A DNA stretch of 51,995 nt, taken from Bacteroidota bacterium (GTDB taxonomy: Bacteria > Bacteroidota > Bacteroidia > Chitinophagales > Saprospiraceae). Positions 30,198 to 33,300 of the stretch are shown here, in pieces. Where the stretch lies: the NCBI GenBank assembly GCA_016124585.1, contig WGNL01000041.1:1-51995 (forward strand). The letters run 5' to 3'. The notes beneath the pieces are model-generated. The model ran no database searches and was not told where the DNA came from. It saw only the letters and a program-made list of their open reading frames with translations. How positions within the stretch are numbered: the stretch's first letter is position 1; every line of letters begins with the position of its first letter. The position numbers were made by a program, and so were the translations under genes.

Positions 30198-31217
30198 TTA
30201 ATCTTCTTCCGTTTTGTAAACAGACAATGCCTGCCCCAGCCGATTCGCAATCTTTTCCCGCAACCGCCTTGGCGACAGTACCTCCACCAATTCGCCCATG
30301 CCGATGATTTCCCGCTCCAATTCGTAGTTCCAGATGACTTTGATGTTGATTAAAACGAATCCCTCTTCTTCCTTCAAAATAGTTTGGCTGGGGTGCAGCG
30401 GCTTCGTCGTAAGATACGGCAACTGCTCTCGTCGCAGTCGTAGCACGATATTGCTGGCCCGCTGCTTCATCGTTTTTGAGACGCCAATCACATCATCAAA
30501 ATAGGTGAAAACATCCACCGAAGCAGGGCGATATGCATTTGCAGTATCTTCCCGAAGCGAATTAATACGGTCGAGCGCCAGTAAAATGGGCGTGTTGCTT
30601 TTTTTAAAACTGCCCAGCACAAACCAACGGTTGTTGTACTGTTTCAGCAAGTGCGGATGAAAATGCTCTTCCTTGGCCTCCCTAGCTTTGAACGACTGGT
30701 ACTCAATAAGCAGTACTGTTTTTTTCAAAATGGCTGCATGAATCAGCTCGATGTACTCCAAGCCTTTCAATTGTTCATTTTTGTCCAAATCAATATAAGA
30801 ACGCCCCTCGTTGCCCTGCTTCAAAATCTTGTCTTCCAACCGGGCAACCATCGTTGAGAGGTCTTGAAAATAGCCGAGCCCCTTGAGCTGCCGCATCAGG
30901 CCGACCACCTCCTTGAGCTTGCTCACGTCGTATTCCGAAATGGGCGTGTTCGAAATGCTGTAATTCCGGTCTTCGTAGATGTAGAATTTCCGCTCCACGA
31001 CCACGATGGGTGCATTGAAACCGAAGCGCTCGCTCCGCATGTGCTGGATGTCGAGTTGCACCGTGCGCTTCCCGACGCCCGATTTTATCCCCTCGAATTC
31101 GTACACCGCCTCGGAGACGGCAGCCACCAAATCGTCCAAAGTCCATTTGCGGTAGTGGTTCTGAAGGCAGCGGTCAATGGCTTTGTAGCGGATAAGCGCC
31201 AATTTATTTACAGGCAT
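30198..31217 (-). CDS. WYL-domain transcriptional regulator
   Basis: The protein has 339 residues from the ATG at 31217 (MPVNKLALIRYKAIDRCL). The N-terminal winged-helix region (about 1-75) contains DDLVAAVSEAVYEFEG and GVGKRTVQLDIQHMRSERFG. The WYL domain (about 150-230) has LLIEYQSFKAREAKEEHFHP and LLKQYNNRWFVLGSF, and a WCX-like C-terminal part follows. WYL domains bind nucleic acids or nucleotides and often control defence and repair loci. A perfect palindrome lies 114 bp upstream, between this gene and the divergent tRNA-like RNA/Band-7 unit, so it most likely regulates both. Confidence 0.9.
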   Translation of the reverse strand: MPVNKLALIRYKAIDRCLQNHYRKWTLDDLVAAVSEAVYEFEGIKSGVGKRTVQLDIQHMRSERFGFNAPIVVVERKFYIYEDRNYSISNTPISEYDVSKLKEVVGLMRQLKGLGYFQDLSTMVARLEDKILKQGNEGRSYIDLDKNEQLKGLEYIELIHAAILKKTVLLIEYQSFKAREAKEEHFHPHLLKQYNNRWFVLGSFKKSNTPILLALDRINSLREDTANAYRPASVDVFTYFDDVIGVSKTMKQRASNIVLRLRREQLPYLTTKPLHPSQTILKEEEGFVLINIKVIWNYELEREIIGMGELVEVLSPRRLREKIANRLGQALSVYKTEED

Positions 31218-31330
31218 GGAACTATTTTTTTTAAAAAAATGGTTATTGGTTTCGCTTCGCAAAACCTTGATTTTCAACACTTTCCAAGTAAAGGACAAAA
31301 ATCCTAAAAAAAATTTTCAAAAATAAATTT

Positions 31331-31355
31331 TACTGCGCAAATCGGTTGCGCAGTA
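31331..31355. promoter_or_regulatory. Operator-like palindrome TACTGCGCAA-N5-TTGCGCAGTA
   Basis: A perfect 10-bp inverted repeat with a 5-bp spacer (ATCGG) lies in the divergent region of the WYL regulator and the tRNA-like RNA/Band-7 unit. Its size and symmetry suit a dimeric winged-helix regulator. A possible -7 element (GAGCTTTG, one mismatch to TAnnTTTG) follows at 31362-31369 on the plus strand, so the site would cover the rightward promoter. Confidence 0.6.
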
Positions 31356-31654
31356 GGAGTGGAGCTTTGTCCCATCATTCACCGAAAGCGGTAAATGTTC
31401 AAAAAATTGACATCACGAAAACGTGAATATACCCTGACAACACTGGGCAGATCTGACAGCAAGTATGCGTTTCAGGTTCCCCTTTCAGCGTCAGGGGCAA
31501 TGAAATTGTGCTTTTGCACGGAAGAGGGTAAAAGTAGTTTGCCAAAGCACCTGATGAGGGTTTCTGCATGGCCCCGTAGTGCCAACCCGGTTTGGACTTG
31601 GTATGCTGGCTTAACAAATTGCTTTTTCCACCAGGCCGCTCAAAACGGCGTCAC

Positions 31655-31725
31655 GCCATGTGTCGTGGGTTCGACTCCCACCGCCTCCCAAAGGGGGTGT
31701 AATTCAGTGGTAGAATAATGGCTTC
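31655..31725 (+). ncRNA. tRNA-like unit 1, circularly permuted, tRNA-Gly-like body
   Basis: All arms of a tRNA can be paired, but the 3' half comes first. In order: anticodon-stem 3' strand GCCAT (31655-31659), variable loop GTGTC, T-arm GTGGG-TTCGACT-CCCAC (31665-31681), acceptor 3' strand CGCCTCC (31682-31688), spacer CAAA, acceptor 5' strand GGGGGTG (31693-31699), TA, D-arm ATTC-AGTGGTA-GAAT (31702-31716), A, anticodon-stem 5' strand ATGGC (31718-31722), TTC. ATGGC pairs with GCCAT, and the acceptor pairs with five Watson-Crick and two G-T pairs. The body resembles bacterial tRNA-Gly. The acceptor is capped by a 4-nt loop and the chain is open in the anticodon loop, so it mimics a nicked tRNA rather than a chargeable one. 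Confidence 0.6.
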
Positions 31726-31727
31726 TG

Positions 31728-31802
31728 GAAGCGCAGGTTCGAATCCTGCTCCCGACTCGTCGGGATAGCTCAGTTGGTTAGAGCAATGGATTGTGGTTCC
31801 AT
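31728..31802 (+). ncRNA. tRNA-like unit 2, circularly permuted, tRNA-His(GTG)-like
   Basis: The order is T-arm GCAGG-TTCGAAT-CCTGC (31733-31749), acceptor 3' strand TCCCGAC (31750-31756), spacer TC, acceptor 5' strand GTCGGGA (31759-31765), TA, D-arm GCTC-AGTTGGTTA-GAGC (31768-31784), A, anticodon arm ATGGA-TTGTGGT-TCCAT (31786-31802). Every stem is perfect (5, 7, 4, 5 bp). The anticodon is GTG with T before and G after. The opening falls in the variable loop. The acceptor is closed by two bases, so no CCA end can form, and the G-1:C73 identity pair of tRNA-His is missing. An ordinary His tRNA gene is therefore excluded. A remnant of fused tandem tRNA genes is the main alternative. Confidence 0.62.
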
Positions 31803-31844
31803 TCCTTTTTTGAAAAAAGCACGGCAAGAGCATCACCCAAGCCC

Positions 31845-31868
31845 CTCCCAGCGCTCCGGCGCAGGGAG
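31845..31868 (+). other. Stable GC-rich hairpin in the leader of the Band-7 gene
   Basis: CTCCC-A-GCGC (31845-31854) pairs with GCGC-A-GGGAG (31859-31868) around TCCG, with one A-A mismatch. A second 6-bp hairpin CGACGA-TGG-TCGTCG follows at 31955-31969. The stretch 31803-32199 has no convincing coding frame and looks like structured RNA. Confidence 0.45.
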
Positions 31869-32045
31869 AACAGGCAATTCGGCAGCAGCTCGAAACACCG
31901 GGATACCGCAGGTCAACTCCCGAAGACTTCCCCTCCAACGACGGTGGGCAAAAACGACGATGGTCGTCGGCGCCTGCCAGTCCAAGGACAGGGAACTCTC
32001 CGGTTGGCGGCCTGCTCAACGGTGATTCCGCAAAAGCTGGATGGG

Positions 32046-32084
32046 GATGCTTGCGCCCGCTTTAAAAAAGCATCGGTCTTTTGT
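32046..32084 (+). terminator. Possible terminator or attenuator before the Band-7 gene
   Basis: GATGCTT (32046-32052) pairs with AAGCATC (32068-32074), followed by GGTCTTTTG. It could end the tRNA-like RNA transcript, leaving Band-7 to read-through or its own promoter. Confidence 0.35.
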
Positions 32085-32199
32085 CACTGGTCATTTTGAC
32101 ACAAGACAATCATTTGATATTCAATAGTTTAACTAAATAGATTGGAGCCTGCTTCGAATTACGAATCACAAGTTGCCAATCAATAATCAACACCAAATC

Positions 32200-33300
32200 A
32201 TGAAACTCGTAACGATTTATCCGTACCAAGTCGGTTTAAAATTCAAGGATGGCAACTATTGCCAAACGCTGACCGAAGGAAAGCATTGGCTGTGGCCAAG
32301 TGAATCCGTCAAGGTCTATGACCTGACGAAGGACTTCGTGCCACCTTGCGAATTGAACATCCTGACCGCTGACCTAGCTTTCCAGCGATTAGTGGACATC
32401 GTGGAGATTCGGGACAACGAAATTGCCCTGCAATACCTCAACGGCAATTTCCGTAAGGTGTTGACGCCCGGTCGGTACGCATTCTGGAAGAGCGTCATGG
32501 CTTACGAGCACCGCATCATCAACCTCGATGATTACGAGATTGCTGCGGATATCGACCGGAAAATACTGCAACGGAGCGACGTCAGCGCGTACATGCGAGT
32601 GTTCGTGGTGGAATTTTACGAAGAGGGTTTGCTCTACCTGAGCGGCAAGTTGGTAAAACAACTCGGCCCAGGCGTGTACTACTACTGGAAAAACGAGCAA
32701 CCGATTGCCGTGTTGAAGACCGACCTGCGGCATCAGTTGATGGAAATCAGCGGACAGGAAATCCTGACAAAGGACAAGGCCGCTATCCGGATCAATTTCT
32801 ACGCCCAGTACAAGATCGTTGATTTGCAAAAGGCTGTTGTGGAGACAAAGGAACTTGTGAAACAACTGTACATCGTCATCCAGTTGGCCATTCGGGAGTA
32901 CGTCGGTACCATGACTCTCGACGAACTACTGGCGAATAAGGAAAGTGTTGCACCGTTCATCCTGAAAGATGTTGCTGAAAAAGCCGTTGGAATGGGCGCC
33001 ACAGTTTCTGACTGCGGTATCCGGGACATCATCTTACCAGGCGATGTGAAGGACATCATGAACCAAGTGTTGGTGGCTGAAAAAAAGGCCCAAGCCAATA
33101 TCATCACCCGTCGGGAAGAAACGGCTTCCACCCGGAGCTTGCTCAACACGGCGAAGCTGATGGAGGAGAACGAGATGCTCTTCAAGCTGAAAGAGATGGA
33201 ATACGTGGAGAAAATCGCCGAGAAAATCAATAGCATCTCTGTCTCTGGGGGTGGTCAGTTGGTGGAGCAGTTGAGGCAGATTTTTACCGTTCAGAAGTGA
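32200..33300 (+). CDS. Band-7/SPFH-domain (slipin-like) protein with three N-terminal repeats
   Basis: The protein has 366 residues from the ATG at 32200. The SPFH domain covers about 165-300 (ILTKDKAAIRINFYAQYKI, LYIVIQLAIREYVGTMTLDE), and a charged helical tail (about 290-345, VAEKKAQANIITRREETAS) supports oligomerisation. No N-terminal membrane segment is present, unlike classical slipins. Instead residues 8-31, 72-96 and 139-163 are three copies of a short beta module with the pattern (V/I/L)xLxYxxGxxxxxLxPGxYxxW (VGLKFKDGNYCQTLTEGKHW, IALQYLNGNFRKVLTPGRYA, LLYLSGKLVKQLGPGVYYYW). Band-7 proteins paired with a tRNA-like RNA have been proposed as scaffolds in RNA repair. The gene lies downstream of the permuted tRNA-like units and the WYL palindrome. 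Confidence 0.88.
   Translation: MKLVTIYPYQVGLKFKDGNYCQTLTEGKHWLWPSESVKVYDLTKDFVPPCELNILTADLAFQRLVDIVEIRDNEIALQYLNGNFRKVLTPGRYAFWKSVMAYEHRIINLDDYEIAADIDRKILQRSDVSAYMRVFVVEFYEEGLLYLSGKLVKQLGPGVYYYWKNEQPIAVLKTDLRHQLMEISGQEILTKDKAAIRINFYAQYKIVDLQKAVVETKELVKQLYIVIQLAIREYVGTMTLDELLANKESVAPFILKDVAEKAVGMGATVSDCGIRDIILPGDVKDIMNQVLVAEKKAQANIITRREETASTRSLLNTAKLMEENEMLFKLKEMEYVEKIAEKINSISVSGGGQLVEQLRQIFTVQK

What the first reader, a model, noticed from the sequence alone, without database searches (positions are those of the whole stretch)
31217..33300. Circularly permuted tRNA-like RNA pair between a WYL regulator and a Band-7 protein
Seen in sequence: two adjacent units, each with complete T-arm, acceptor, D-arm and anticodon-stem pairings, but in the order 3' half then 5' half. 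Acceptor strands are joined by CAAA (unit 1) and TC (unit 2); the chain is open in the anticodon loop (unit 1) and the variable loop (unit 2). The His-like unit has perfect stems of 5, 7, 4 and 5 bp. Such molecules cannot be aminoacylated; unit 1 imitates a tRNA cut in its anticodon loop. Established knowledge: Burroughs and Aravind (2016) reported SPFH/Band-7 modules with a tRNA-like RNA among RNA-repair systems. Inference: the RNA is a decoy, sensor or ligation substrate for anticodon-nuclease damage, scaffolded by the Band-7 protein and controlled by the WYL protein. I do not recall the permuted order or tandem pair being described.
Basis: partly seen in the sequence, partly recalled or inferred. 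Interest (0 to 1): 0.92.

Follow-up and report, generated by a model that had tools for sequence, protein, structure and literature searches.

The report
Permuted tRNA-mimic RNA beside Band-7 gene
A bacterial gene for a membrane-scaffold-like protein is usually preceded by an RNA built from two tRNA look-alikes whose halves are swapped, so that they cannot carry an amino acid in the normal way but still show a normal anticodon loop, probably as a decoy or scaffold in a tRNA-damage response.

Summary
Two adjacent tRNA-like units in 3'-half/5'-half order lie at 31655-31722 and 31733-31802, upstream of a Band-7 gene (32200-33300). The pair is conserved with strong covariation: a model built from 28 loci finds it in 63 of 81 Band-7 loci, those 28 included. 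Among 60 relatives, 9 of 10 genomes with the gene carry the full pair, the tenth has weaker hits upstream, and none of the other 50 scores that high. RtcB (33 of 81) and RlaP (10 of 81) are neighbours in relatives, so it belongs to RNA-repair islands; that association is in print (Burroughs and Aravind 2016, seen only through citing passages). Unit 1 has the arm order of the Y RNA YrlA, so permutation itself is not new. 42 of 81 loci have upstream tRNA genes, divergent where compared, many with altered residue 37. A palindrome with one exact copy in the genome lies between the WYL gene and the RNA. Best reading: decoy/scaffold RNA in a tRNA-damage response. Function is inferred.

The parts
30198..31217 (-). 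WYL-WCX transcription regulator, divergent from the RNA
   Evidence: Pfam WYL 40.5 bits and WCX 45.1 bits; homologue divergent upstream in 32 of 81 loci by ORF clustering
31333..31353 (.). Palindrome CTGCGCA-N7-TGCGCAG, predicted operator of the WYL protein
   Evidence: TGCGCA-N7-TGCGCA upstream of the RNA in 25 of 81 loci, 18 of them with the WYL gene; only exact match in the 6.63 Mb genome; binding not tested
31550..31609 (+). 5' domain of the RNA, conserved core (CCTGATGAGGGTTTCTGCATGGC...GGTATGCTGG)
   Evidence: conserved and partly covarying in an alignment of 77 loci (weak consensus energy, -8.3)
31655..31722 (+). Unit 1: permuted tRNA-like module, YrlA-type (closing anticodon stem, T arm, acceptor hairpin, D arm), no anticodon loop
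   Evidence: R1 match 126.8 bits over 31655-31802 (the window is in the training set); covariation in every helix; YrlA sub-threshold hit
31682..31699 (+). Unit 1 sealed acceptor: 7-pair stem with linker CAAA
   Evidence: covariation
31733..31802 (+). Unit 2: permuted tRNA-like module open at the variable loop (T arm, acceptor hairpin with TC linker, D arm, anticodon arm)
31786..31802 (+). Unit 2 anticodon arm; loop TTGTGGT at 31791-31797 is identical to the loop of this genome's own tRNA-His(GTG)
31803..32199 (+). Region between unit 2 and the Band-7 start (397 nt); conserved patches, no convincing consensus fold
32200..33300 (+). Band-7/SPFH protein, 366 aa: three N-terminal beta repeats, SPFH domain, C-terminal helix
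   Evidence: Pfam Band_7 122.1 bits; repeats by profile comparison; AlphaFold2 model mean pLDDT 76.6 and Foldseek

Best explanation
The locus is a stress-response unit against tRNA damage. Shown by sequence: a structured RNA carries two tRNA-like modules that keep the tRNA elbow (T loop UUCRANU, D-loop GG) but have the acceptor end sealed into a hairpin, so as drawn no amino acid can be attached. The second module keeps a native anticodon loop. The RNA is encoded just upstream of a Band-7 protein with repeats in a vault-like order. Inferred: the WYL protein senses damage and releases the operator; the RNA is made with the Band-7 protein and forms an RNP cage; module 1 docks elbow-binding factors as YrlA does; module 2 shows anticodon nucleases a normal but useless anticodon loop, holding or diverting them while RtcB/RlaP mend cut tRNAs. 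In loci that have them, the upstream tRNAs with altered anticodon loops help to keep translation going.
For: Co-occurrence with the Band-7 gene among 60 relatives: 9 of 10 gene-bearing genomes have the pair at 98 bits or more, the tenth two weaker hits upstream, 0 of 50 others above 66 bits. Repair neighbours: RtcB 33, RlaP 10, RF-1-type 8 of 81 loci, union 43; in Citrobacter the gene order is RtcR (divergent), RNA region, Band-7, RlaP. Unit-2 loop: Y32 71 of 71, U33 69 of 71, purine 37 71 of 71, residues 34-36 in 18 triplets; residues 34-37 as housekeeping in 59 of 62, G36 followed by G37 in 17 of 18. Of 12 loci with a single T-arm motif near the gene, 7 still have an anticodon-arm hairpin. 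Upstream tRNA genes on the same strand in 42 of 81 loci: residues 34-37 as housekeeping in only 105 of 218, G37 after G36 in 10 of 76; 45-71% identical to a housekeeping tRNA with the same anticodon in the 12 of 16 that had one in my set (two genomes). Precedent passages: YrlA tRNA-like domain suggested as competitive inhibitor of the nuclease (Hughes 2020); Anabaena TrcR represses a tRNA array, rtcB and a slipin gene.
Against: No transcript, binding or phenotype data. The window has no RtcB nearby (RtcB lies on another contig) and no upstream tRNA genes. The anticodon triplet changes about as fast as the unpaired spacer (0.30 against 0.27 at 85% identity or more), which shows lack of constraint, not an arms race. 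Five of the 12 single-T-arm loci have no anticodon-arm hairpin, so bait cannot be the whole function. Many upstream tRNAs keep the native residue 37 (Tyr 24 of 24, Lys 14 of 14), and where unit 2 and an upstream tRNA of one locus share the anticodon, 7 of 11 pairs have identical loops. 4 of 13 further Band-7 loci fetched by protein have no full-pair hit at E 1e-19. The E. coli and Citrobacter versions keep, by eye, only a T arm and an acceptor hairpin. No terminator was recognised on the + strand, so a cis-acting leader is not excluded. Loci are related, so counts are not independent events.
Confidence: 0.42

Rival explanations
1. Scaffold without decoy function: the RNA is a Y-RNA-like tether. 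The tRNA-like modules dock tRNA-binding enzymes (RtcB, RlaP, modification enzymes or an exonuclease) onto a Band-7 cage, as YrlA tethers PNPase to Rsr; anticodon loops are kept only for shape or for modification enzymes.
For: Unit 1 has the YrlA order of arms (sub-threshold YrlA hit over unit 1 in five of seven further loci). D-loop GG 77 of 77 and 76 of 77, T loops conserved. PMC8394870 passages: YrlA tethers Rsr to PNPase and is a substrate of DusA and TruB. Five of 12 single-T-arm loci have no anticodon-arm hairpin. Coupling of residues 36 and 37 would suit modification enzymes.
Against: Does not by itself explain why anticodon-arm hairpins remain in 7 of 12 single-T-arm loci, or why the triplet varies freely within a native frame.
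Confidence: 0.3
2. Cis-acting leader: the RNA is the 5' untranslated region of the Band-7 mRNA, and the mimics sense tRNA or a tRNA-binding protein to set Band-7 expression.
For: In cis and same strand, the pair ending about 276-885 nt before the start in the 63 loci measured; no terminator pattern on the + strand between RNA and gene in the window.
Against: The known relative YrlA works as part of an RNP (PMC8394870 passages); native anticodon loop unexplained unless the sensor is itself a tRNA enzyme. Alternative terminator/antiterminator folds were not searched for.
Confidence: 0.15
3. Permuted pre-tRNA: as in permuted tRNA genes of red algae (recalled), the transcript is circularised by RtcB and cut at the linker to give a working tRNA.
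For: RtcB neighbours; native anticodon loop in unit 2; a few Flavobacteria have unit-2 linkers of about 9 nt containing ACCA.
Against: Linkers are mostly only a few nt (whose counts include the 7th pair), too short for CCA plus a leader; CCA occurs in 4 of 77 (unit 1) and 3 of 77 (unit 2); unit 1 has no U33-like residue (T in 34 of 77) after its stem.
Confidence: 0.05
4. Assembly collapse or chance arrangement of ordinary tandem tRNA genes.
For: Adjacent ordinary tRNA genes give R1 scores up to 74 bits, so the model alone can be fooled.
Against: Ordinary-order pairing is at chance; 63 of 81 loci score 81 bits or more upstream of the gene; covariation in all helices.
Confidence: 0.01

Closest known systems
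YrlA-type Y RNA (Rfam RF02553)
   Same: Same order of arms as unit 1: closing stem, T arm, acceptor hairpin, D arm; in an RNA-repair operon in Salmonella (passages)
   Different: Below the gathering score (37.5 and 35.8 against 69); two modules in tandem; second module opened at the variable loop with a full anticodon arm; partner gene is Band-7
SPFH/Band-7 RNA-repair systems with a tRNA-like RNA (Burroughs and Aravind 2016)
   Same: Band-7 gene, tRNA-like RNA, RtcB and RlaP neighbours; very probably the same systems
   Different: The paper was not held, so whether it shows permutation, the pair, the anticodon loop or the upstream tRNAs is unknown to me
Major vault protein / vault
   Same: Repeats, SPFH-like domain, helix in the same order (MVP order recalled); Foldseek matches to MVP run over 418-471 alignment columns, gaps included (top 50 of 274 shown); PMC13404743 passages speak of bacterial MVP homologues sharing operons with ncRNAs and RtcB
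   Different: Three repeats only; no MVP sequence hit at E up to 10; stomatin is the best match in both searches
Anabaena TrcR regulon
   Same: tRNA array, rtcB and a slipin gene under one repressor (passages)
   Different: Genes scattered; 'WYL' does not occur in that paper's text; a tRNA-like RNA there was not examined by me
Phage tRNAs with anticodon-loop changes (PMC10264068)
   Same: tRNAs differing from host tRNAs in the anticodon loop (passages)
   Different: Here they lie in bacterial loci beside a repair module
Permuted tmRNA (RF04321)
   Same: Permuted tRNA-like idea
   Different: 22 bits against 47; no tag reading frame sought

Membership tests
YrlA Y RNA (RF02553) | permuted tRNA-like domain, arms in YrlA order | tested here: met
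   alignments; unit 1 covers model positions 23-85
YrlA Y RNA (RF02553) | Rfam gathering score 69 bits | tested here: not met
   37.5 and 35.8 bits; best 44.3 in seven more loci
YrlA Y RNA (RF02553) | basal stem binding Rsr/Ro, rsr gene nearby | tested here: inconclusive
   no TROVE among the 15 window and neighbour proteins scanned, one per cluster; the basal stem was not modelled
tRNA | ordinary order, ARAGORN or gathering score | tested here: not met
tRNA | free acceptor end for aminoacylation | tested here: not met
   acceptor strands joined by a linker in the gene, mostly short; processing not tested
Permuted tRNA gene (red-algal type, recalled) | processable spacer between acceptor strands, anticodon loop formed on ligation | tested here: not met
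Band-7 RNA-repair system | Band-7/SPFH protein | tested here: met
Band-7 RNA-repair system | linked tRNA-like RNA | tested here: met
Band-7 RNA-repair system | linked RNA ligase or nucleotidyltransferase | tested here: inconclusive
   RtcB or RlaP in many relatives but not in the window; own RtcB is elsewhere
Vault (MVP) | MVP sequence homology | tested here: not met
   no MVP chain at E up to 10
Vault (MVP) | repeat-SPFH-helix fold order | tested here: inconclusive
   Foldseek MVP hits with TM 0.33-0.42 by query length; nearly all of residues 304-366 of the model have pLDDT under 50

The most novel reading that the evidence does not exclude
A bait-and-spare immunity unit. The cell makes an un-chargeable, permuted tRNA mimic that presents the native anticodon loop of a tRNA under attack, mounted on a vault-like Band-7 cage. 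From the same island it makes spare tRNAs, many with residue 37 swapped so that a nuclease may no longer cut them. Bait copies the housekeeping loop (59 of 62 at residues 34-37), spares often avoid it (105 of 218; G37 after G36 in 17 of 18 against 10 of 76).
Probability: 0.25. Interest if true: 0.9.

Novelty: new variant of a known kind. Interest (0 to 1): 0.72.

Why it matters
It turns an obscure Band-7/ncRNA association into something with a defined anatomy and testable parts: an un-chargeable tRNA mimic, a native anticodon loop, upstream tRNAs with altered loops, an operator and a cage-like protein. It bears on what vault-like proteins and Y RNAs are for. A reduced version of the locus is in 1621 of 5426 complete E. 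coli genomes (80% of the query or more), so the question can be taken to a tractable host.

Tried and rejected
Assembly collapse and chance: rejected. Ordinary-order pairing between the two units: at chance. Permuted pre-tRNA: disfavoured. Macro-domain and 768-aa genes beside the Band-7 gene as parts: rejected, 0 and 1 of 80 loci. Phage origin: no hit at E 1e-20 in 50,697 phage records. Promoter/terminator scan: nothing convincing. Consensus fold of the 3' region: none convincing. Accelerated change of the anticodon triplet: not found beyond spacer rate. R1 without a high threshold is not specific: adjacent ordinary tRNA genes score up to 74 bits, and all 60 relatives give some hit at E 0.001. 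Nine paper searches, of which I saw listings, showed no description of the tandem pair, of its anticodon loops or of the upstream tRNAs beside it; the 2016 paper and the YrlA papers are not held, so I make no claim that these are absent from print.
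Full report
WHAT IS THERE. The two permuted units are in the sequence as described (coordinates in parts). The window lies on contig C18 of a 6.63 Mb genome, and no other full copy was found in it. ARAGORN and Rfam at gathering score see nothing in the window. 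With lax thresholds on 31200-32250 Rfam sees YrlA twice and tRNA twice, all below gathering.

CONSERVATION. The Band-7 protein was used to fetch the best 80 of 234 related loci, 51-82% identical. A T-arm motif lies within 2.5 kb upstream in all 80, tRNA genes included. Units were then located by T arm and D arm only, blind to acceptor and anticodon-stem pairing: at least one unit in 74 of 81 loci (window included) and a spaced pair in 50 of 81. In those 50 the permuted acceptor strands pair at 6.26 of 7 (unit 1) and 6.14 of 7 (unit 2), against 4.05 and 3.41 after dealing strands between loci; ordinary-order pairing is at chance. The anticodon stem of unit 1, with a variable region of 4 or 5 nt, is 5 of 5 in 45 of 50. 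On 28 aligned pairs, 35 of 41 base pairs show double changes, and RNAalifold predicts the permuted arms by itself apart from unit 1's closing stem. A covariance model from these 28 scores 81 bits or more in 63 of 81 loci, that is in 35 of the 53 not used to build it; adjacent ordinary tRNA genes reach 74 bits, so weaker scores mean little. Of 13 further Band-7 loci fetched by protein from other genomes 9 pass at E 1e-19 and 4 do not (L096, L098, L099, L107). Pair counts on the 77 hits lean towards the model, because hits were chosen and aligned by it.

DISTRIBUTION. Among 60 relatives the Band-7 gene (E 1e-30) occurs in 10 and the pair scores 98 bits or more in 9 of these. Four of the nine (G000, G005, G010, G011) have scores and lengths equal to the training members window, L018, L005 and L004 and are probably the same genomes. 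The tenth (G056) has hits of 57 and 53 bits ending about 1350 and 420 nt upstream of its gene. None of the 50 others scores above 66 bits (strict filters, at most 52 candidates scored per genome). In a sample of 296 Bacteroidota genomes 14, the own one included, have the gene. Presence is patchy even within the genus (4 of 14), as for accessory or defence loci.

NEIGHBOURS. ORF clustering of the 81 loci gives WYL in 32 (all divergent, upstream; 33 of 80 by tblastn), RtcB in 33 (all same strand, 30 of them downstream), RlaP in 10, an RF-1-domain protein in 8, an RNase_T exonuclease in 12 and a TPR protein in 21 (names from one representative each, flanks of 4-5 kb at most). The window has only WYL and Band-7; its RtcB is on another contig. 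A palindrome TGCGCA-N7-TGCGCA lies upstream of the RNA in 25 of 81 loci; its longer form has one exact match in this genome. With up to two mismatches 29 sites appear against 3 for a reversed control, so looser sites of this shape are not rare.

WHAT THE RNA KEEPS AND WHAT IT LOSES. Kept in both units: T loop and the D-loop GG (77 of 77 and 76 of 77), that is, the tRNA elbow. Lost in both: a free acceptor end; linkers are mostly a few nucleotides, longer (about 20) in some Flavobacteria. Unit 1 has no anticodon loop. Unit 2 keeps one with the classical signature: 7 nt in 71 of 77, Y32 in 71 of 71, U33 in 69 of 71, purine 37 in 71 of 71, with 34-36 free. Residues 34-37 match a housekeeping tRNA in 59 of the 62 whose anticodon exists in the set from three genomes (113 predictions, 92 distinct), and G36 is followed by G37 in 17 of 18, as in that set (22 of 23). 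The window's loop is that of its own tRNA-His. Close relatives often differ in the triplet, but at the rate of the spacer, so this is freedom and not proof of an arms race. Of the 18 loci without a full-pair hit, 12 have a single T-arm motif within 720 nt of the gene: 7 of these keep an anticodon-arm hairpin (L023, L024, L025, L028, L033, L036, L079) and 5 do not (L006, L009, L019, L049, L081). Of the other six, L035, L044 and L055 have the hairpin beside two T arms, L029 has none, and L021 and L080 are confounded by tRNA genes. The total of 169 hairpins printed there includes T arms and is not used.

UPSTREAM tRNAs. In 42 of 81 loci ARAGORN finds one to sixteen tRNA genes upstream within the 4 kb held, and none there on the other strand (three predictions look like the RNA itself misread). 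Ten of the 42 have only one. None is called Ala, Gly or Thr. In two genomes compared, 12 of 16 have a housekeeping tRNA with the same anticodon in my set and are 45-71% identical to it. Residue 37 is swapped in some isoacceptors: Asp U37 19 of 19, Pro A37 15 of 15, His A37 17 of 18, Phe G37 15 of 16, where housekeeping tRNAs have A, G, G and A. In others it is not: Tyr A37 24 of 24, Lys A37 14 of 14. Overall 105 of 218 match housekeeping residues 34-37, against 59 of 62 for unit 2. The loci are related, so the Fisher values printed there overstate the evidence; on distinct loops the figures are 28 of 50 and 19 of 22. Eleven times unit 2 and an upstream tRNA of the same locus share the anticodon: in 4 the loops differ (His, Glu, Phe twice) and in 7 they are identical (Met, Lys). 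The window itself has no such genes.

BEYOND BACTEROIDOTA. Nine plasmid-database records hold relatives of 34-41% identity, seven over 80% of the query or more: E. coli, Citrobacter, Subdoligranulum, Photobacterium, Burkholderia (five looked at). Read by eye: E. coli and Citrobacter have a sigma-54-like sequence (motif recalled) and a T arm directly followed by an acceptor hairpin; Subdoligranulum has two T arms and one such hairpin; Photobacterium has two tRNA-like units in ordinary order (Rfam tRNA 54 and 46 bits). In Citrobacter the flanking genes are RtcR and RlaP. The E. coli locus matches in 1624 of 5426 complete genomes, 1621 of them over 80% or more. An origin of the permuted pair from tandem tRNAs whose outer halves were lost is a guess from the Photobacterium case, untested.

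THE PROTEIN. Three N-terminal repeats resemble each other by profile, followed by SPFH and a helix. Stomatin is the best match by sequence and fold; vault protein matches by fold over 418-471 columns, gaps included, but not by sequence. The C-terminal sixty residues of the model are of low confidence.

MECHANISM. Shown: anatomy, conservation, linkage. Inferred: expression on tRNA damage, RNP formation, docking by the elbow, bait by the unit-2 loop, rescue by upstream tRNAs. Hughes 2020 (passages) raises competitive inhibition of the nuclease for YrlA, and the Anabaena work (passages) shows a tRNA array, rtcB and a slipin gene under one repressor that is relieved by translational stress. A pure scaffold and a cis-acting leader remain open.

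KNOWN OR NEW. The link of bacterial MVP homologues, operon ncRNAs and RtcB is in print, as passages in PMC13404743 state by citing Burroughs and Aravind 2016; the wording of that paper's abstract, with SPFH/Band-7 and a tRNA-like molecule, I only recall. The permuted order is that of YrlA. What I did not find described is the tandem pair with different break points, the native anticodon loop and the altered tRNAs beside it; since the main paper was out of reach this is not a claim of absence. I file it as a new variant of a known kind.

Noticed in passing
L026, L030, L032, L042, L053, L059, L062 and others, up to 4 kb upstream of the Band-7 start: Same-strand arrays of tRNA genes, some isoacceptors with swapped residue 37, none called Ala, Gly or Thr.
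   Followed up: partly
L109 and L202 (E. coli): Reduced version of the locus (T arm plus acceptor hairpin, Band-7, RlaP) near yjbD and lysC; matched in 1624 of 5426 complete E. coli genomes; in strain WAT a zeta-toxin family gene lies beside it.
   Followed up: partly
L112:3626-3763: Photobacterium relative has two tRNA-like units in ordinary, not permuted, order before the Band-7 gene.
   Followed up: no
window:31333-31353: Palindrome of a kind shared by 25 of 81 loci, likely WYL operator.
   Followed up: partly
L023, L024, L025, L033: Chitinophaga loci keep unit 1 but have one or two bare anticodon-arm hairpins instead of unit 2, and the WYL-containing ORF cluster has a second member downstream of Band-7.
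   Followed up: no
L035, L044, L055: Flavobacterium loci seem to carry the two units in the other order: the unit with its own anticodon arm first, the one closed by an anticodon stem second (by eye).
   Followed up: no
L004:715-1845: The closest full-length Band-7 relative (81% identity) has an in-frame stop in this assembly; not mended or read through.
   Followed up: no
window:33949-36255: 768-aa ORF without a Pfam match, with patatin-like SGGG and GASGG stretches by eye.
   Followed up: no
L005, about 130 to 20 nt before the Band-7 start: Run of tandem copies of a TTGAGAAA-like unit.
   Followed up: no
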